Shown here: positions 22,714 through 30,367 of the stretch, piece after piece
How positions within the stretch are numbered: position 1 is the stretch's first letter
Layout of the letters: each line of letters starts with the position of its first letter
DNA from: Desulfobulbaceae bacterium
Lineage (GTDB): Bacteria; Desulfobacterota; Desulfobulbia; Desulfobulbales; Desulfobulbaceae
Length of the DNA: 36,841 bases
Assembly: GCA_023544645.1 (NCBI GenBank)
Contig: JAMJFO010000034.1
Coordinates: 1-36,841, forward strand
Reading direction: 5' to 3'
The notes under the pieces: generated by a model
Seen by the model: the letters and a program-made list of their open reading frames with translations, nothing else
What the model was told of the DNA's origin: nothing
Database searches by the model: none
Made by a program: the position numbers and the translations under genes

Positions 22714-23033
22714 GATTGACGTAGTATGGATGAGGGTCGTCTTCCGATCAGAAAATTTGCGTGTTCAGTTTATCAGATCAGTGAAGATAATGGAAAAGAA
22801 AAAGATCCGGTCGAATAGAAGCTCTAGCCCTGATTTTCAGTATAGGTTCATTTTTTCAGAATTATTTCAACTTGATTAATCCTTTTTTTCCTCTTGACGC
22901 TCTTCGGGGAACATACTAAATATTTAAATTTATTTCCAGAGACCGATAAAGTTTTGTTTGGAAACCGGTTTCCAGGTAAGCCTGTTTCCTTTTTATTTTG
23001 TTTTTTTATCAAGGGACTAAAGGAGGAATTATT
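22714..23033. other. Intergenic region with candidate pyrophosphatase promoter
   Basis: This 320-bp AT-rich divergent gap has no credible gene. TTGACG (22894-22899) and TAAATA (22917-22922), spaced 17 bp, form a possible but weak sigma-70 promoter on the plus strand. It would give a leader of about 105 nt to the ATG at 23034. Confidence 0.35.
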
Positions 23034-23954
23034 ATGTCTGTTTATGTCGTAGGTCACAAAAGCCCGGACACGGATTCGGTAACTGCTGCCATTGCTTATG
23101 CTGAGTTGATGAAAGCCAAGGGGGAAGACTATATTCCCTGCATGCAGGGCAAAGCAAACCCGGAAACAATAACTGTACTCGATCGTTTCGGCGTGGCCAT
23201 GCCGGAAAACATGACCGATGCGGCCGGCAAGCAGGTTGCTCTGGTTGATCACAGTGATCTGGCCCAGGCGCCGGACAATCTCTCTGACGGTGAAGTTGTG
23301 GCCATTGTTGATCATCATAAGATCGGTGATGTCACCACCAACAATCCCATTTTTTTCTGTGCCATGCCTGTCGGCTGCACCGGTACCGTGCTCAAGGTTC
23401 TGTATGACCTGGAAGGCATTGCCATCCAGCCGCAGATCGCCGGCATCATGCTGGCCGCTATCCTCAGTGATACGGTAAACTTCAAATCGCCCACCTGTAC
23501 CGACGCGGACAAGAAAGCAGTTGCAGAGCTGAAGAGCATAGCCGGGGTCGACGATACCGACTCCCTGTTCATGGATATGCTCAAGGCCAAGAGCGCGGTT
23601 GAAGGTGTTCCGCCCATGGACCTGCTCGATCGTGATTACAAGGATTTTGACATGAAAGGCAAGAAGGTCGGCGTGGGCCAGCTTGAACTCGCCACCCTTG
23701 ATCAGGTTGCATCCATGCGTGATGATCTTTACAAGGCCATGGAAGAGAAAAAGGCCGGCGGCCGCCATTCAGTGCTGTTGATGCTGACCGATGTTGTGAA
23801 GGAGGGCACCGATTTGATGGTCGTGTCTGATGACCCTGCGATGATCGAAGGCGCGTTTAACGCTAAGCTCGACGGCAACTCCATGTGGATCGACGGCATG
23901 ATGAGCCGCAAAAAACAGACTGTGCCGAATCTGCAGAAGGCTTTCGGCTGCTGA
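23034..23954 (+). CDS. ppaC: Manganese-dependent inorganic pyrophosphatase (family II, DHH/DHHA2)
   Basis: The 306-residue cytoplasmic enzyme hydrolyses pyrophosphate to phosphate, pulling biosynthetic reactions forward. The N-terminal DHH domain shows the metal ligands His8, Asp12 and Asp14 in GHKSPDTDS, Asp72-His73 in LVDHSDL, and the DHH signature IVDHHKIGD (Asp93, His94, His95). The C-terminal DHHA2 domain ends with MMSRKKQTVPNLQKAF, the SRKKQ substrate-binding motif. No CBS or DRTGG insert is present, so it is the short, non-nucleotide-regulated form. A near-perfect Shine-Dalgarno (AAAGGAGGAATT) at 23019-23030 supports this start and high expression; the frame is open further upstream but lacks support. 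Confidence 0.96.
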   Translation: MSVYVVGHKSPDTDSVTAAIAYAELMKAKGEDYIPCMQGKANPETITVLDRFGVAMPENMTDAAGKQVALVDHSDLAQAPDNLSDGEVVAIVDHHKIGDVTTNNPIFFCAMPVGCTGTVLKVLYDLEGIAIQPQIAGIMLAAILSDTVNFKSPTCTDADKKAVAELKSIAGVDDTDSLFMDMLKAKSAVEGVPPMDLLDRDYKDFDMKGKKVGVGQLELATLDQVASMRDDLYKAMEEKKAGGRHSVLLMLTDVVKEGTDLMVVSDDPAMIEGAFNAKLDGNSMWIDGMMSRKKQTVPNLQKAFGC

Positions 23955-23976: not shown

Positions 23977-24008
23977 AAAAAGGGTGGCCTTTGGCCGCCC
24001 TTTTTTTT
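23977..24008. terminator. Bidirectional rho-independent terminator
   Basis: GGGTGGCC (23982-23989) and GGCCGCCC (23993-24000) form an 8-bp stem with one G-T pair and a TTT loop. It has five As to the left and eight Ts to the right. It ends the ppaC transcript and, in reverse, the cytochrome transcript. Confidence 0.9.
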
Positions 24009-24013
24009 TCGGG

Positions 24014-25630
24014 TTAATGACCTGCAGCGGGGCAGCGGATTTTGTTGAGTTTTTCGCTGTAGATGAAATTATCATCACGTTCAGGTGTATGACACATCAG
24101 GCACGTTTGTTCATCCGGTTGAGCCGGGCGGAACCGATCCGGCTGCAGCGAATGATCACGGGCCGGACCGTGACAGGCTTCACAGCCGATGGTCTTGTAT
24201 TCCTCTTTCAGGCCGGCCAGCAGGTTTTGATCGATCACACTGTCCTGATCATAGGTGGGCAGAGTGACATGGCAGATCAAACATTCCGGATTGAACTGCT
24301 GGTTTTCCCGCACCAGGGTCTGCCATGCTTTCGCATGAGCTGTCTGCTGCCAGAATTCTGTCTGTGGTTTATGACACGACTGGCATACCTGCCAACCGGC
24401 GAGGTTGGAAAATGCCTGTTGATTAACCTGTGATCTCCGCTGCTGCAGATCCCCCAAGGTGCTCCGGTTGATTTTATTCACCGCAAGCTTGGTCCGGTGG
24501 ATGATTTCACGAACCTCCTGATCTTCCGGCAGGGAAACGGGCAGGCTGATGTAGCTGCTCCTGTAGGTGGCAAGCTGCTCCTCCTCACCCTGCCGGCGTG
24601 CTTCAATCTCTGCCAGTTCGGCGGTCAGCCTGTTTTTTTCCTCCAGCAGCTGTTGGTACTGAGCGTTCTGTTCACCTGGATCGGAACCATACCTTTTTAT
24701 CAGCCGGCCGATCTGCCAGTTAATCCTGTCAAGTCGATCCTTTATCGGCTTGATCCCCGATTGCGCCGACTGTTTCCAGGTGCGGGACGGCTTCCAGTCA
24801 ATGTCAAGGCGGCCGATATGCTTTCCTCGGCTGCCGATCTGGGTAATGAGGGTGTTGCCGAAGAGCTGGGGGGTTTTGTGGGCGGCTGACTGGCCGGATT
24901 GGATAAGAAGATGAATGTCATCGAATCGTTGGGCTATTTCGCGGTTGGTCTGTTCCGGCAGGCTTGACAGCAGGATGACCATGTCGGTCTGGTCCCTGAT
25001 CCGGGCAAGGGTATCCCCCAGCGTCTTTTCCCAGGGGAGAAAGCGGTGACCGGAGTGGTCCTGCTGGCCGGAAACGTCCTGGCTGCGGCCGGTCAGGCCG
25101 AGAATGCCGATGGACAGATCCCCCGCGTTTTTGATAATATACGGCGCAAAAAGGGGTTGCTCGCTATCCGGCTGGACAAGGTTCATTGACAGCCAGGGGA
25201 GCTGCAAGTCCTCCGGCTGCTGGAGAAGAAAAGGGATCCCGGCGACCAGATCCTGCGGCGCCAGGCCAAAGGCGTCATAGCCCATTTCAGCCATGGCCTC
25301 GATTATCCCGCCGGCCTGAACTGTCCTGGCCGTGACCAGCGATGGGGCGAGAACAGGCTGGGCAAAGAGCATGGCTCCTGCGTCAAGAACCAGTTTGGCA
25401 CCGGGTTCTTCCTGTTGTATTTTGTTCAGGATGTAGGCTCTTCTGGACAGACCGCCCATTTGATTCGTGCTTCAGCCGCAGGGTTCGGTTTCGCCCCGAA
25501 TATCGTTGGAATAGAGGATGACCAGTTCGGAGGCATGCGCTGCCGGGGAAGTCATGCTTGTCAGCTGGAGTGATAGAGCCAGAGTCAGTACAAGAAGGCT
25601 GGCCAGGCTGTCAGGTTTTTTGGTGTTCAT
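24014..25630 (-). CDS. Secreted tetraheme cytochrome c with UshA-like domain; apparent selenoprotein (in-frame TGA at 25474-25472)
   Basis: The reading frame from ATG 25630 gives 538 residues if the TGA at codon 53 is read as selenocysteine. Order: signal peptide (1-34, ending SPAAHA); a 5'-nucleotidase/UshA-like metallophosphatase domain (~35-290) starting ELVILYSNDIRGETEPCGU and continuing STNQMGGLSRRAYIL; a coiled coil (~297-357); and a cytochrome c-554-like domain with four CxxCH heme sites at 416, 450, 483 and 510. Homologues, as I recall them, read EPCGC here, so U replaces a Cys. Metal-ligand positions look degenerate (NDxR for NDxH, DAGA for DAGD), so phosphatase activity is doubtful and a redox role more likely. 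Without readthrough the ORF starts at 25459 and lacks any export signal, which is incompatible with heme c attachment. The gene overlaps rarA by 20 bp. Confidence 0.85.
25442..25474 (-). promoter_or_regulatory. Candidate bacterial SECIS element
   Basis: Directly after the UGA (25474-25472) the mRNA can form the stem UGGGC/GUCCA (25458-25454 and 25448-25444) with loop GGUCU. The GGUC starts 18 nt after the UGA, which, as I recall it, is also the spacing and loop sequence of the E. coli fdhF SECIS recognised by SelB. The apical stem has four Watson-Crick pairs and one G-U. The lower stem is weak. Confidence 0.7.
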
Positions 25631-26969
25631 TTTCCAATGCTCGCTGTTGAAGTATTTTTCGCCATTTTACGAGACGATCGCGAATAACCGCTTCATAACC
25701 GCGGGTGGTCGGGTCGTAGTAGGTTCTTCCTGCCAGTTTATCCGGCAGATGGTTCTGGGCAACCAGGGCATCGCGGCTGTCGTGGGCATACTGATAGCCG
25801 CTGCCGTATCCGATGTCCTTCATAAGTTTGGTCGGGGCATTACGCAGGTGCAGGGGAACGGGAAGTGTTCCGGTTTGCCGGATATCCTTGCGCACCTTGT
25901 TGCTGGCCATGTACAGGGCATTGCTTTTGGGTGCGGTGGCAAGGTATGCGGTGACCTGGACAAGCGCCAGTTCTCCCTCCGGGGAGCCGAGAATATGATA
26001 GGCCTCCCTGCCGTTAAGCGCAACCTGTAATGCCTGGGGATCGGCGATGCCTACATCTTCGGAGGCAAACCTGATGAGCCGCCGGGCGATATACAGCGGA
26101 TCTTCTCCTGCTTCAAGCATGCGGCCCAACCAGTAAAGCGCCCCGTCAGGATCGCTGTCGCGCAGGCTTTTATGCAGGGCCGAGATCTGGTTGTAGTGCT
26201 CCTCTCCCCCTGTGTCATAGCGCAGATTCCGGTGCTGCCCAGCTTCCCGGATAAGCTCCGGAGTGATGATAATCTCCGCGTCTTCCGGTTCCTCCCCGTC
26301 TCCTTCCAGGGCAAGAACAGCAGCGGTTTCCAGGCAGTTCAGGGCGCGGCGGCTGTCTCCGTCGGCATACTGGATGAGTGAATTGATGCCCTCATCTTCA
26401 AGGAGAAAATTGTACTTGCCCAAGCCGTTTTTGTGGTCGGCAAGGGCCCGGAGAATGATGGATCTGATGTTGTCCGGCGTAAGGGGTTCGAGCACCAGTG
26501 TCTGGCAGCGGGAAAGCAGGGGGGCGATGACGTTGAAGGAGGGGTTTTCCGTAGTCGCTCCGATCAGGGTCAGTAGGCCGCTCTCCACATGGGGAAGGAA
26601 CGCGTCCTGCTGTCCCTTGTTGAACCGGTGGATTTCATCAACAAAGAGCACCGTGCCGCGGCCTGCCGCTCTTTTTTTTTCAGCCCCGTCAACGATCAGA
26701 CGGATTTCTTTGACTCCGGAAAGCACTGCGGAGAAGAATACGAAATCCGCCTCGACCGATCGGGCCAGGATGTTTGCAAGAGTTGTTTTGCCGGACCCGG
26801 GAGGACCCCAGAGGAGAAGGGACGGAAGTTTTCGACTCAGCATCAGCTGGTGCAGAAGACGGCCCGGAGCCACCAGGTGTTCCTGGCCGAAAAAATCTTC
26901 CAGGGAGGATGGGCGCACACGTTCTGCAAGCGGTGTGTTGAATTGGAGTTGTCCGGTCATATCAGTCAT
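25611..26969 (-). CDS. rarA: Replication-associated recombination protein A (RarA/MgsA AAA+ ATPase)
   Basis: The 452-residue AAA+ ATPase of the RarA/WRNIP1 family acts at stalled replication forks and is related to clamp loaders. It shows Walker A GPPGSGKTT (Gly55-Thr62), Walker B VLFVDEIHRFNK (Asp111, Glu112), sensor 1 IGATTENPSF, the arginine-finger region LLSRCQTL, sensor 2 DGDSRRALNCLE, and a C-terminal tetramerisation domain ending YEAVIRDRLVKW. The length is normal for the family. A second ATG at 26960 (MTGQLQFN) may be the true start, because a good promoter ends two bases before the first ATG. Its 3' end overlaps the cytochrome gene, which is therefore probably co-transcribed and translationally coupled, an odd pairing functionally. 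Confidence 0.94.
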   Translation of the reverse strand: MTDMTGQLQFNTPLAERVRPSSLEDFFGQEHLVAPGRLLHQLMLSRKLPSLLLWGPPGSGKTTLANILARSVEADFVFFSAVLSGVKEIRLIVDGAEKKRAAGRGTVLFVDEIHRFNKGQQDAFLPHVESGLLTLIGATTENPSFNVIAPLLSRCQTLVLEPLTPDNIRSIILRALADHKNGLGKYNFLLEDEGINSLIQYADGDSRRALNCLETAAVLALEGDGEEPEDAEIIITPELIREAGQHRNLRYDTGGEEHYNQISALHKSLRDSDPDGALYWLGRMLEAGEDPLYIARRLIRFASEDVGIADPQALQVALNGREAYHILGSPEGELALVQVTAYLATAPKSNALYMASNKVRKDIRQTGTLPVPLHLRNAPTKLMKDIGYGSGYQYAHDSRDALVAQNHLPDKLAGRTYYDPTTRGYEAVIRDRLVKWRKILQQRALENEHQKT

Positions 26970-27117: not shown

Positions 27118-28683
27118 ATGAAGTTTAATAATATTTTACTTGTCAGCACGGACCAGTCCGACATCAGGGAAATCAAGGATGCCCTGGTTGAGCACGAGGT
27201 GCTGGTCTGTTCGTATCAGCGCGAAGCAGTTCAGCTGTGCAGGGAGCAGGAGGTTCTCCTGGTGATCGTCGAAGAGGAGCTTCCCGGCTACAGCGGCAGT
27301 CAGCTTTTTGAAGAGCTGAAGGAACAGCGTCCATGGCTCGCCGGGGTGCTCATATCCGAGAAAGCCGACGAAGATCTGCTGCGCAGGGCTCTGGAGATCG
27401 GTTTTACCGGTCTGCTTGAAAAACCCCTTGAACCGGTCAAACTGCTGCAGCGAATTTACCGCGCCATAGAATCAGCAGCCCTGCAGGAGGAAAACACCCG
27501 TCTGCGCACGCTCCTGCCCCTGTACAATTTCGGGGAGAAGTTTCTTAATTCGACAACGGATCAGGAAGTATTTGACAGCCTGCTTGATGTGGTGGCGGAA
27601 GTCACCAGAGCCAGCAGGATATCGGTAATGTGGTATATGGAAAAGGAGGATTGCCTCCGGATTGTTGCTTCACACGGTATTGATGCCGACCTTGCCCGGT
27701 CCATCCGGGTAAAGCCGGGAGATCAGGTGGCCGGATGGGTCTATCAGAAAGGCAAGCCGGTCATTCTCAACAGGAATTCCCAGGACCAGTCCATTTTTGC
27801 GCCCCTTCTGCAGCGCCAGGATGTATCGGCCGCGGTTTCTTTTCCGATCACCATGCGCGGCAAGATCCTGGGGGTCCTCAACATCAGTCAGCAGAACGAA
27901 GATGCCAGGTTCAGCGAATCTGACATAGAGATGCTGGCGGTGATCTGCAGTCAGGCGTCAATGGCCCTTGCCAATGTCCGCTACCGGTCGGTGATGGAAG
28001 AGAAAACACGGACGCGGACAATTTTTCAGCAGTATGTTTCACCCGAGGTCGCGGAGCTGCTTATATCAAGCGGCACAGATCTGGTGGGGGTAGGCGAGAT
28101 AAAAAAAGTCACTGTTTTTTTTGCCGATATCCGTGAATCAACCACCCTGGTTCAGCTTCTTCCGCTTAAAGAACTGCGGGCATTTCTCAACGAATTTTTT
28201 CATATTTTCACTGACGGCATATTTCACGGCAAGGGAACGGTGGATAAGTTCATGGGGGATGCCGTGCTGGCCATATTCGGCGCTCCCGTTGACCTGGAAA
28301 ATCAGAATCTGGCGGCGATCCGGGCCGCCATGGATATCAGGCAGCGGTTTCTGCAGCTGAAAAGTGAATGGATTGTCCGCCACGAGGAATTCAAGCTCGT
28401 TGACCTGGCAGTTGGTGTGGCCTGCGGCGAGGTGTTTATTGGTAATGTCGGTTCATCAAACCGTTTTGATTATACGGTTATCGGTATGCCCGTCAATGTC
28501 GCGCAAAGAATTGCCGCTGCTTCTCCATCCGGCGCCATTCATATAACCGGGGAGGTGGTGCAGGAGGTGAGGGAGTATTTTGATATTGCAGAGGTCGGCA
28601 CCATGCGGCTCCGCGGTGTAAAGAATTTTGTGCCTGTTTATGCAGTAGGGAAAGAAAAGTTTGTGCAGCAAAGAAAAAAGTGA
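27118..28683 (+). CDS. Class III adenylate/guanylate cyclase with pseudo-receiver and GAF domains
   Basis: The 521-residue cytoplasmic protein has a receiver-like domain (~4-118), a GAF domain (~145-290) and a class III cyclase domain (~325-510). The cyclase keeps both metal Asp residues (Asp337 in FFADIREST and Asp381 in KFMGDAVLAIFG), Lys377 for base selection, and NVAQR (Asn460, Arg464), so it should be active, most likely making cAMP. The receiver domain has Glu52 (IVEEELPGYSG) where the phosphorylated Asp should be, while Asp12, Ser80 and Lys102 are kept. It may therefore be locked or sense something other than phosphorylation. The GAF domain may bind a small ligand. There is no clear ribosome-binding site. 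It is convergent with the PilZ cluster. Confidence 0.9.
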   Translation: MKFNNILLVSTDQSDIREIKDALVEHEVLVCSYQREAVQLCREQEVLLVIVEEELPGYSGSQLFEELKEQRPWLAGVLISEKADEDLLRRALEIGFTGLLEKPLEPVKLLQRIYRAIESAALQEENTRLRTLLPLYNFGEKFLNSTTDQEVFDSLLDVVAEVTRASRISVMWYMEKEDCLRIVASHGIDADLARSIRVKPGDQVAGWVYQKGKPVILNRNSQDQSIFAPLLQRQDVSAAVSFPITMRGKILGVLNISQQNEDARFSESDIEMLAVICSQASMALANVRYRSVMEEKTRTRTIFQQYVSPEVAELLISSGTDLVGVGEIKKVTVFFADIRESTTLVQLLPLKELRAFLNEFFHIFTDGIFHGKGTVDKFMGDAVLAIFGAPVDLENQNLAAIRAAMDIRQRFLQLKSEWIVRHEEFKLVDLAVGVACGEVFIGNVGSSNRFDYTVIGMPVNVAQRIAAASPSGAIHITGEVVQEVREYFDIAEVGTMRLRGVKNFVPVYAVGKEKFVQQRKK

Positions 28684-28741: not shown

Positions 28742-29188
28742 CTATTTGTTCGGCAGGGGATTGGCCAATGAAGACCAGAGTTCATCCCTGTCCTTCTGTT
28801 TTTTCATCAACTCTTTTTCCAGACGTTGCATTTTTTCTCCTTCGGGACTGAGAAGAAAGTTCACGCCCATACGAAAAGCCTTGATCTCCTCTATCTGGAA
28901 AGGATTGATCCACACAGGCCGGCAGGGGATGACAAGGTTGCACAGCTCCGGGGGAATATTGATATGCAGTTCAAGGATCGACTCTTCATTGTCCATGGTG
29001 GAATGGTAGACATGATAGTTTCGCTGCAGAACCTGGGTCATGAGAAGGCAGGCCCCATGTCTGGAAATATCGATTATCCTGCCGGAAAAAGGGCCCACCG
29101 TCTCGCCACTTTCTCCTCCGGGCACAGCAAAAACCGAGATAGGAAGGAAGTCGGCATACCGCTTTGAACGCCGCAGATCAGTATTCAT
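28742..29188 (-). CDS. PilZ domain protein (fourth of a tandem set)
   Basis: The 148-residue protein begins MNTDLRRSKRYADFLPISVF. It has both c-di-GMP contacts of PilZ domains: R-x3-R in RRSKR near residues 6-10, and D-x-S-x2-G in IIDISRHGA. The shared middle motif HVYHSTMDNEES and the PVWINPF strand are common to all four paralogues here. It is the only member with a C-terminal extension, a charged helix (EKMQRLEKELMKKQKDRDEL) probably forming a coiled coil for dimerisation or partner binding. Its start overlaps the preceding stop by 4 bp (ATGA), so it is translationally coupled. As a small single-domain protein it would act as a c-di-GMP-dependent adaptor. Confidence 0.84.
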   Translation of the reverse strand: MNTDLRRSKRYADFLPISVFAVPGGESGETVGPFSGRIIDISRHGACLLMTQVLQRNYHVYHSTMDNEESILELHINIPPELCNLVIPCRPVWINPFQIEEIKAFRMGVNFLLSPEGEKMQRLEKELMKKQKDRDELWSSLANPLPNK

Positions 29189-29577
29189 CGTTTACGCACT
29201 ACCTGTTCTAAATGGCTCATTTCTTCATTGTCGGCATCATCAAGGAATTCAATGCCGATCTTGAAGGCACGAAAATCACCTTCACGGAAGATGTCCATCC
29301 ACACCGGTTGACCGGTAATCTTGCAGTTAATTATTTCCGGCTGGATATTGATCGTCAGCTGGATGCAGGAGTTGTCCTTTTCCTTGGTCGAATAAAAGAG
29401 GTGAAAGGAGTTCTCAATGACCTGGGACATCAGCAGGCAGGCTCCATGACGGGAGATGTTGATTATCCTGCCTGGCAACGGCCCGGCCAGCACTTCGTTG
29501 CATTCGCTGTCCATGGCCGCAACATCAATGGGCAGGAAACGGTTGTAACGTTTTGAACTACGCAATTCGTGAGTCAT
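29185..29577 (-). CDS. PilZ domain protein (third of a tandem set)
   Basis: The 130-residue single-domain protein begins MTHELRSSKRYNRFLPIDVA, with R-x3-R (RSSKR) and N-x-S-x2-G in IINISRHGACLL, so c-di-GMP binding should be retained. The paralogue-specific FHLFYSTKEKDNS and PVWMDIFREGDF segments follow. Both ends overlap the neighbouring genes by 4 bp (ATGA at 29185-29188 and at 29574-29577). It differs from its neighbours mainly at the N-terminal loop and the C-terminal tail, where partner specificity may lie. Confidence 0.84.
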   Translation of the reverse strand: MTHELRSSKRYNRFLPIDVAAMDSECNEVLAGPLPGRIINISRHGACLLMSQVIENSFHLFYSTKEKDNSCIQLTINIQPEIINCKITGQPVWMDIFREGDFRAFKIGIEFLDDADNEEMSHLEQVVRKR

Positions 29578-29966
29578 ATCTCGTCGGCCAGCCTGTTGAT
29601 TGCCCGTAATAGATTCTTGTCAATGGTGTTGACAAAGTCCACGCCCATTTTAAAAAACTTGATGTCGTCCATTTTAGCAGCGTTCAGCCAGACCGGCTGC
29701 GCCGAAATGATAATGGGCCCAGGATCTGTAGGGGTGTTGATATGCAGGGAGAGATTAATGGAATCATTCTCCCTGGTCGAGTGGAAGATATGGAAGGACT
29801 CCATCATAACCTGGGTCATGAGCAGGCAGGCTCCGTGATTGGATATATCCACAACTCTCGCGGAAAAGGGCCCAGCGACCTGGGAGTCGTCATCATTGTT
29901 CCGCGCATAAACGGAAATGGGTAGAAAATCTGTAAGCCGGCTTGATCGTCTCGGTTCGGAATTCAT
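29574..29966 (-). CDS. PilZ domain protein (second of a tandem set)
   Basis: The 130-residue protein begins MNSEPRRSSRLTDFLPISVY, with R-x3-R (RRSSR) and D-x-S-x2-G in VVDISNHGACLL. Asn replaces the Arg found in the other three members inside the second motif (SNHG versus SRHG), at a variable position. It has the shared FHIFHSTREND and PVWLNAAKMDDIKFFKMGVDF segments. It overlaps the gene on each side by 4 bp. Binding to c-di-GMP is predicted from the motifs, not shown. Confidence 0.84.
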   Translation of the reverse strand: MNSEPRRSSRLTDFLPISVYARNNDDDSQVAGPFSARVVDISNHGACLLMTQVMMESFHIFHSTRENDSINLSLHINTPTDPGPIIISAQPVWLNAAKMDDIKFFKMGVDFVNTIDKNLLRAINRLADEI

Positions 29967-30367
29967 TGCTTGTCCACGATATCAAACATGTTGTCAATGA
30001 TAATATCTGCCTGGTCTGTTTCCGTGCCGGAAGTGAAATCAACCCCCATTTTAAAGGCTCGGATATCATCAAGGATAAACGGGTCCATCCATATGGGGCG
30101 GGCGGCCAGCATGAATACGTCCAAACCGGGATCCATGCCCCCGCGGATCTCCAGGCGTATTGAATCCTTTTTGCTCGTTGAACGGTAAACGTCGCAGGCT
30201 TCCGGTGCGCCGAGGGGCATGAGCAGACAGGCGCCGTGTCGTGAGATATTGATTATCCTGCCGACAGACGAATCTGCCTCCCCGTTGCCGTTCACTTGGT
30301 TGCGGGCCAGAATGCTGACAGCAATAAAATCATTGTAACGCTTGGAACGACGTAGATCACTATTCAT
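29963..30367 (-). CDS. PilZ domain protein (first of a tandem set)
   Basis: The 134-residue protein begins MNSDLRRSKRYNDFIAVSIL, with Arg6-x3-Arg10 and N-x-S-x2-G in IINISRHGACLL. It is the most divergent of the four in the middle (DVYRSTSKKDSIRLEIRG) and has an acidic C-terminal tail (TETDQADIIIDNMFDIVDK). It is the first gene of the minus-strand cluster, so the operon promoter should lie in 30368-30595, shared with the divergent aldehyde dehydrogenase gene. I see no strong Shine-Dalgarno before its ATG. Confidence 0.84.
   Translation of the reverse strand: MNSDLRRSKRYNDFIAVSILARNQVNGNGEADSSVGRIINISRHGACLLMPLGAPEACDVYRSTSKKDSIRLEIRGGMDPGLDVFMLAARPIWMDPFILDDIRAFKMGVDFTSGTETDQADIIIDNMFDIVDKQ

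What the first reader, a model, noticed from the sequence alone, without database searches (positions are those of the whole stretch)
25436..25630. Hidden selenoprotein: in-frame TGA in a CGU motif with a SECIS-like hairpin
The 481-codon frame starting at 25459 encodes a four-heme cytochrome without a signal peptide. Reading through the TGA at 25474-25472 joins it to an upstream segment, in the same frame, with a perfect signal peptide and the domain start LVILYSNDIRGETEPCG. The UGA sits where homologues, as I recall, have the second Cys of EPCGC. A hairpin with loop GGUC begins 18 nt after the UGA, as in E. coli fdhF. A C-x-U pair in a periplasmic multiheme protein would be a striking redox centre, and automated gene calling would miss it.
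Basis: partly seen in the sequence, partly recalled or inferred. Interest (0 to 1): 0.88.

Follow-up and report, generated by a model that had tools for sequence, protein, structure and literature searches.

The report
Selenocysteine-containing periplasmic tetraheme protein, known family
A gene that looks cut in two by a stop codon very probably makes one exported, heme-carrying protein with selenocysteine at that codon; it belongs to a selenoprotein family that is already catalogued but whose job appears to be unknown.

Summary
Reading TGA 25474-25472 as Sec gives a 538-aa protein (25630-24014, minus) that scores 641 bits against NCBIfam NF041198 'UshA-like (seleno)protein' (cut-off 275); a 2026 review lists that model with a CxU motif. 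The genome has selA, selB, selC and two selD. Of 142 family genes in the class sample, 132 have TGA at this codon, 10 TGC/TGT. Behind the TGA, third codon positions are nearly frozen and form a hairpin with a GGUCU loop, 18 nt from the UGA as in E. coli fdhF; its outer pair covaries. Three genomes with Cys here (one matches Ca. Electronema aureum) gave no selC and no selB above cut-off. Added here: the N-domain has the UshA/SoxB metallophosphatase fold with degenerate metal ligands, while CGC/CGU is kept in 66 of 66 rows across phyla; 51 of 141 genes lack the cytochrome in frame, yet 49 of these keep Sec; the partner Cys is fixed in 80 of 80 cytochrome-bearing Sec proteins but shifted or missing in 13 of 49 without it. 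Best mechanism: a selenol/thiol redox centre wired to four hemes; substrate unknown.

The parts
24014..25630 (-). whole coding region of the UshA-like selenoprotein with a C-terminal tetraheme domain, 538 aa, Sec at residue 53, TAA stop
25472..25474 (-). in-frame TGA read as Sec53 (motif EPCG-U)
   Evidence: TGA in 132 of 142 family genes, TGC/TGT in 10
25532..25630 (-). signal-peptide-like segment, residues 1-33, AHA before the presumed cleavage site (judged by eye, no predictor run)
25444..25458 (-). SECIS-like hairpin, 5-bp stem UGGGC/GUCCA
   Evidence: frozen codons, stem positions paired in 123-124 of 125, outer pair of the family covaries; energy does not single it out
25449..25453 (-). 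loop GGUCU of the hairpin, 18 nt after the UGA, same register as E. coli fdhF
24545..25531 (-). metallophosphatase-fold (UshA/SoxB-like) domain, residues 34-362, including a long two-helix insertion; metal ligands not conserved
   Evidence: model pLDDT 92; Z about 31 to 3ivd, 1hp1, 2wdc; ligand columns
24017..24397 (-). c554-like tetraheme cytochrome domain, residues 412-538
   Evidence: PF13435 at 415-488; 1bvb E 1.7e-24 with the family profile
24371..24385 (-). heme motif 1, CQSCH (416-420)
24269..24283 (-). heme motif 2, CLICH (450-454)
24170..24184 (-). heme motif 3, CEACH (483-487)
24089..24103 (-). heme motif 4, CLMCH (510-514)
25611..26969 (-). rarA/mgsA-type AAA ATPase, directly upstream and overlapping by 20 nt; ends in TGA; a homologue lies upstream on the same strand in 82 of 179 loci
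22998..23954 (+). Mn-dependent inorganic pyrophosphatase, convergent downstream neighbour; a homologue lies so in 74 of 179 loci

Best explanation
The locus encodes one exported protein, 25630-24014. UGA codon 53 is read as selenocysteine by SelB and tRNA-Sec, directed by a hairpin within the coding sequence (comparative evidence, no experiment; I put this part alone at about 0.96). The protein is a member of NF041198. Its first domain has the UshA/SoxB metallophosphatase fold but has lost most metal ligands; the constant feature is Cys51-Gly-Sec53 in the loop after strand 1, which in this fold lies at the edge of the former active site (fold and loss of ligands from model and alignment; position relative to the site inferred). 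Most likely the selenolate attacks an oxidised or sulfane-type sulfur (or selenium) substrate, Cys51 resolves it as a selenenylsulfide, and electrons pass between this centre and the four c-type hemes of the C-terminal c554-like domain and so to the periplasmic cytochrome pool (inferred; direction and substrate unknown). The confidence given is for the whole statement, mechanism included.
For: NF041198: 641 bits, cut-off 275. selA, selB, selC and two selD in the genome; the second selD has its own in-frame TGA in TCG-U-AAK. TGA in 132 of 142, TGC/TGT in 10 of 142. In 125 distinct Sec sequences, codons 6-8 after the UGA are GGC 123, GGT 102, CTG 122, against 44%, 19% and 38% for these codons elsewhere in 131 of the Sec genes. 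Five inner pairs form in 123-124 of 125; outer pair C-G 47, T-A 46, C-A 22, T-G 3, other 7. On a tree, the two sides of the outer pair change together (about 7 with, 0.4 against in 14 independent pairs, median p 0.016, range 0.004-0.22; three control positions median p 1, 1 and 0.5). Three genomes with Cys and no selC hit, nor a selB hit above cut-off. CGC/CGU in 66 of 66 rows from the wide, capped scan. Metal-ligand columns degenerate. CxU in 80 of 80 Sec proteins with cytochrome, 36 of 49 without.
Against: No protein or 75Se evidence. The hairpin's energy in this window (-6.7 kcal/mol for UGA plus 42 nt) misses the -7.5 limit of the published bSECIS model, another fold is 0.2 kcal/mol better, and 94% of synonymous resamples were at least as stable. 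In the window itself the covarying outer pair is A-G, unpaired. Rfam gave only one irrelevant hit (E 8) in 24800-25800 (whether Rfam holds a bacterial SECIS model was not checked). Electron transfer between Sec and heme is inferred only: 49 Sec genes have no cytochrome in frame. Some distant rows keep a His at two of the later ligand columns (17 and 10 of 67), so remnants of a metal site are not excluded there. The neighbours identified beside the window's gene are housekeeping genes and give no pathway.
Confidence: 0.65

Rival explanations
1. A pseudogene or assembly error: the gene was broken by a TGA and only the downstream ORF or nothing is made.
For: The ATG ORF 24014-25459 alone starts right behind the TGA and would lack a signal peptide.
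Against: The TGA is at the same codon in 132 of 142 family genes, with the frame open on both sides and frozen synonymous sites just behind it; a full Sec machinery is present.
Confidence: 0.01
2. The frame is read through, but with another amino acid (near-cognate suppression or general TGA reassignment).
For: The TGA is followed by an open frame.
Against: Six of 12 sampled window ORFs, rarA and the pyrophosphatase gene among them, end in TGA, so TGA is not generally reassigned; the codon that replaces TGA in relatives is a Cys codon in 10 of 10 (L171 doubtfully aligned); the three genomes without a selC hit have Cys.
Confidence: 0.02
3. The Sec/Cys motif is not a redox centre: the two residues bind a metal (for example Cu or Zn) in place of the lost phosphatase metals.
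For: The fold is that of metallohydrolases, the motif is kept in 66 of 66 wide-scan rows, and Cys/Sec are good soft-metal ligands (general knowledge).
Against: The partner Cys is shifted or missing in 13 of 49 Sec proteins without the cytochrome while Sec stays, which fits a reactive selenol better than a two-residue metal site.
Confidence: 0.2
4. The N-domain is still a hydrolase (SoxB-like thiosulfohydrolase or nucleotidase) and Sec only tunes it.
For: SoxB model match E 3.5e-16 (58.6 bits, cut-off 550); structural Z about 30 to SoxB and 5'-nucleotidases.
Against: Ligand columns in 67 rows: DxH (placed by eye) has H in 6; GNHE has N in at most 1 and H in 4; GD has D in 15 and is Ala here; the later His columns have H in 17 and 10 and are Ser and Gly here.
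Confidence: 0.1

Closest known systems
NCBIfam NF041198, UshA-like (seleno)protein (CxU), listed in PMC13188914; as UshA-like COG0737, CxU, in PMC9312934 and PMC2398784
   Same: Nearly the whole length matched (residues 15-525 to profile 3-519 of 519), 641 bits against cut-off 275; same CxU site.
   Different: Nothing essential; 40-47% identical to the five best-scoring named loci.
NF049981, UshA-like (seleno)protein family 2 (CxxU)
   Same: Related N-domain, 57.8 bits.
   Different: Below its cut-off of 140; other spacing of the motif in the review's table; profile of 262 positions.
SoxB thiosulfohydrolase and UshA/CD73 5'-nucleotidases
   Same: Same fold of the first domain, Z about 29-31.
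   Different: Most metal ligands not conserved; CGC/CGU added; c-type cytochrome fused.
Cytochrome c554 (1bvb; PF13435)
   Same: C-terminal four-heme domain.
   Different: Fused behind a metallophosphatase-fold domain with Sec.
E. coli fdhF SECIS
   Same: Loop sequence GGUCU and 18 nt from UGA to GGUCUG.
   Different: Different stem sequence; weaker predicted stability of the region (-6.9 against -14.2 kcal/mol for about 41 nt).

Membership tests
NF041198 UshA-like (seleno)protein | score above NCBI's curated cut-off of 275 bits | tested here: met
   641 bits
NF041198 UshA-like (seleno)protein | PCGU/PCGC motif | tested here: met
   EPCG-U at residues 49-53
bacterial selenoprotein | in-frame TGA aligned with Cys in homologues | tested here: met
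   132 of 142 TGA, 10 of 142 TGC/TGT; one of the ten, L171, is doubtfully aligned
bacterial selenoprotein | selA, selB, selC, selD in the genome | tested here: met
bacterial selenoprotein | bSECIS geometry (PMC13188914): loop 3-9 nt, stem 4-16 bp, G in first two loop positions, 16-37 nt from UGA | tested here: met
   5-nt loop GGUCU, 5 bp, 18 nt
bacterial selenoprotein | bSECIS energy at or below -7.5 kcal/mol | tested here: not met
   -6.7 with the hairpin forced, UGA plus 42 nt; -9.8 if 15 nt upstream are added; 101 of 132 family genes meet it in the first frame. The review says that a subset of elements fails this model
bacterial selenoprotein | selenium shown in the protein | not testable with these tools
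   needs 75Se or mass spectrometry
SoxB/UshA metallophosphatase (as an enzyme) | conserved di-metal ligands | tested here: not met
   ligand columns degenerate in 67 rows; of seven ligand positions examined only D43 reads as in the enzymes in the window protein (DxH placed by eye)
SoxB/UshA metallophosphatase (as a fold) | same fold | tested here: met
NF049981 UshA-like family 2 | score above 140 bits | tested here: not met
   57.8 bits

The most novel reading that the evidence does not exclude
A metallophosphatase fold has been turned into an oxidoreductase: it gave up its metal pair and acquired a constant CGC/CGU centre wired to a tetraheme cytochrome, a selenol-heme or thiol-heme enzyme of the cell envelope found from Desulfobulbia to Myxococcota and Planctomycetota. 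Sec is the reactive residue and the partner Cys serves the heme route, which is why that Cys is fixed only where the cytochrome is present.
Probability: 0.45. Interest if true: 0.7.

Novelty: already known. Interest (0 to 1): 0.38.

Why it matters
The selenoprotein itself is a further member of a catalogued family. What makes it worth a biochemist's time is that I found no function for the family in the passages and searches I made, that it is near universal in the class sample (135 of 144 genomes at E up to 1e-40, 112 above the curated cut-off), and that it looks like a dead metallohydrolase rebuilt around a selenol and hemes. Natural variants (Cys for Sec, with and without cytochrome, with and without the partner Cys) already lay out the experiments.

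Tried and rejected
Stability of the hairpin as evidence: rejected. Against 100 synonymous resamples per gene, the median z over 131 genes was -0.42, 10 of 131 genes (7.6%) were in the most stable 5%, and for the window 94% of resamples were at least as stable. I rest the hairpin on codon freezing and covariation instead.

A strict motif regex missed 74 of 142 loci and also read the wrong residue in Cys genes; replaced by a profile search and alignment. A single-protein scan of genome contigs found nothing. Rfam gave no relevant hit in 24800-25800. Operon context as a clue to function: a rarA homologue upstream in 82 and a pyrophosphatase homologue downstream in 74 of 179 loci; DUF1573, DUF4159 and DUF4175 proteins were found by scanning one example each from other phyla; no pathway emerged. 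My first family searches took a wrong-strand frame downstream (22848-23768) and found nothing for it. The paper search for EPCGC was useless because one term sufficed. Searches for selenoprotein with Candidatus Electronema and selenocysteine with cable bacteria gave none and one unrelated paper. The model's coordinates were not in the box, so no Sec-heme distance was measured. No structural search with the cytochrome domain alone was made; its assignment rests on sequence.

Selection and dropped rows: the class sample was drawn by the tool (144 genomes). The 142 genes are one per locus: L002, L031-L059 and L060-L171; L172-L179 repeat eight of them with longer flanks and were left out. Seven of 132 Sec sequences were dropped as duplicates in the first 33 nt. 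One gene (L083) had no callable start and was left out of the architecture counts (141). The selection asked for C-x-U/C near the start, but its 66 rows are the same 66 as, where no such filter was set. Several of these loci lie on contigs of the same length as loci of the 142 (for example L185 and L035), so the two sets overlap.

Full report
What was checked. The window (G000:C81, minus strand) contains an ATG frame of 481 codons, 25459-24014. Directly upstream in the same frame, past a TGA at 25474-25472, lies a stretch that starts at ATG 25630 with a signal-peptide-like segment. Reading the TGA as a residue gives one protein of 538 aa with four CXXCH motifs and the sequence LVILYSNDIRGETEPCG-U-STNQMGGLSRRA. 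The start overlaps the end of rarA by 20 nt; rarA, the convergent pyrophosphatase gene and four more of 12 sampled window ORFs end in TGA, so TGA is an ordinary stop here.

Family. NCBIfam NF041198 'UshA-like (seleno)protein' matches residues 15-525 with 641 bits against a cut-off of 275. A 2026 review (PMC13188914; passages read) lists this very model as UshA-like protein, CxU; a 2022 review table (PMC9312934) and the 2008 Global Ocean Sampling paper (PMC2398784) list UshA-like, COG0737, with CxU (passages read). So the family and its selenocysteine are in print. A search for NF041198 found only the 2026 review.

Selenium machinery. The genome has selA (C10, 642 bits), selB (C96, 378 bits), selC (C87, 74 bits; ARAGORN calls it tRNA-Sec, anticodon tca) and two selD, the second with its own TGA in TCG-U-AAKIG.

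The TGA across relatives. Of 144 genomes of the class, 135 have a family match at E up to 1e-40; 112 of 144 have one above the family's cut-off. I extracted 142 genes, one per fetched locus. At the column of residue 53, 132 have TGA and 10 have TGC or TGT. The ten are L035, L060, L064, L065, L066, L080, L085, L086, L162 and L171; L171 is doubtfully aligned. The fewest Sec/Cys changes on a FastTree tree is five. In a wider, capped scan (best 80 of 207 relatives; 66 with the N-terminus), 48 have Cys and 18 Sec; two of the Sec ones, L197 (uncultured proteobacterium) and L214 (Oligoflexia), are only 23-25% identical to the window protein, the others 33-47%.

A natural experiment. Three genomes of one genus (G074, G084, G032; 92-95% complete; G074's contig has the length of the Ca. 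Electronema aureum contig of L185, and the motif regions read the same) carry Cys. None gave a tRNA-Sec hit at E up to 1e-8 (150 of 180-347 first-look candidates were scored in each), while the six other genomes searched all did under the same limit. None has a selB hit above the curated cut-off; the weaker hits in G074 and G084 lie in frames of about 400 codons and may be other elongation factors. G074's gene still has most of the hairpin sequence. Against a simple rule: G001, G061, G081, G097 and G115 have a Cys copy and selB above cut-off, and G078 has a Cys copy, selC, and selB in two pieces each below cut-off, so Cys does not always mean loss of the machinery.

The hairpin. In 125 distinct Sec sequences (of 132) the codons 5-9 after the UGA are nearly frozen: CTG/TTG 114, GGC 123, GGT 102, CTG 122, TCC/CCC 120. 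Elsewhere in 131 of these genes GGC, GGT and CTG make up 44%, 19% and 38% of their codon families. The stem +14..+18 with +24..+28 pairs in 123-124 of 125 per position. The outer pair +13/+29 is C-G in 47 and T-A in 46, with 22 C-A, 3 T-G and 7 other combinations; here a silent Leu codon change goes with a Lys/Arg change (Fisher p 1.9e-12, which ignores kinship). With kinship allowed for, 14 independent pairs gave about 7 changes the same way against 0.4 the other way (median p 0.016, range 0.004-0.22); three control positions gave medians of 1, 1 and 0.5. UGA-18 nt-GGUCUG is exactly the register of fdhF.

Evidence against the hairpin as an energy feature. For UGA plus 42 nt of this window, the conserved hairpin gives -6.7 and the best fold -6.9 kcal/mol, short of the -7.5 of the published model; with 15 nt upstream it is -9.8. 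With the hairpin forced, 101 of 132 genes meet -7.5 in the first frame. Synonymous resampling shows no excess stability. The window's own outer pair is A-G and open.

Structure. AlphaFold2 on 67 aligned sequences gave mean pLDDT 92 and pTM 0.89 for the mature protein, Sec entered as Cys. The first domain matches 5'-nucleotidases and SoxB (3ivd_A Z 31.4, rmsd 2.5, 277 aligned; 2wdd Z 30.5, rmsd 2.6, 275 aligned). By the profile alignments with 3ivd and venom 5'-nucleotidase (they begin behind the DxH motif, which I placed by eye) and the column counts, most metal ligands are gone: DxH keeps D in 36 and H in 6 of 67; GNHE keeps N in at most 1 and H in 4; GD keeps D in 15; the later His columns keep H in 17 and 10. 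In the window these read D43, R45, P125, Q126, A86, S223, G246. Cys51 and Sec/Cys53 are in 67 of 67, as constant as the best heme residues. The C-terminus matches cytochrome c554 (1bvb, E 1.7e-24).

Two architectures. Of 141 genes with a callable start, 88 have at least three CXXCH, 51 have none in frame, two are partial. Of the 51, L122 is a frame-shifted long gene, and L116 and L123 show cytochrome remnants with two and one heme motifs in another downstream frame; for the other 48 neither the profile search nor the ORF call showed a heme protein in the fetched flanks (about 3 kb where the contig allowed). Sec is present in 80 of 88 and 49 of 51. In the 80 long Sec proteins the motif is always CxU; in the 49 short ones it is CxU 36, CxxU 7, CxxxU 1, no Cys within six residues 5; the three genes just named are among the CxU ones. 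Ten proteins checked, nine of them short, have NF041198 as their best model; five of the nine short ones fall below its cut-off.

How it most likely works. Shown: the frame, the family, the conserved TGA, the machinery, the codon freezing, the predicted fold and the loss of ligands. Inferred: export, Sec insertion in this organism, Sec as the reactive group, Cys51 as resolving residue, and electron exchange with the hemes. Since Sec survives without the cytochrome but the partner Cys becomes free to move, I read Sec as the core and the Cys as its link to the heme route. The substrate is unknown; sulfane sulfur or oxidised sulfur/selenium compounds are the first candidates because the fold is shared with SoxB and many of the named relatives belong to groups of sulfur bacteria (inference and general knowledge).

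Verdict. Observation confirmed, interpretation supported, family already known. The remaining interest lies in a function that is still open.

Noticed in passing
G000:C98:54936-55865 (L027): A second selD with an in-frame TGA at the usual SelD site (TCG-U-AAKIG; site recalled), beside a selD without it on C76.
   Followed up: partly
L035/L185, L066, L080 (G074, G084, G032): One genus, including what looks like the cable bacterium Ca. Electronema aureum, has Cys here and gave no tRNA-Sec hit and no selB above cut-off: apparent loss of selenocysteine in a lineage whose relatives have it.
   Followed up: partly
L111-L169 (short forms): 51 of 141 family genes lack the cytochrome in frame; among the Sec ones the partner Cys is shifted or missing in 13 of 49.
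   Followed up: partly
L200, L211, L215, L222, L224, L226, L228, L235, L237, L240: In these ten loci, from Scalindua, Brocadiaceae and Planctomycetota-type records, homologous genes lie upstream of the Cys form; the one scanned (L240) has DUF1573 and 94.6 bits to NF041425, OS_HP2 (seleno)protein, below its cut-off of 100.
   Followed up: partly
window 28742-30367 (-): Four small genes in tandem, three with a PilZ domain above Pfam's threshold, next to a response regulator-GAF-guanylate cyclase gene (27118-28683; a homologue of the latter lies near in 56 of 179 loci).
   Followed up: no
window 23977-24000: A G+C-rich inverted repeat flanked by A and T runs between the selenoprotein gene and the convergent pyrophosphatase gene looks like a shared terminator (seen in the sequence; not scored).
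   Followed up: no
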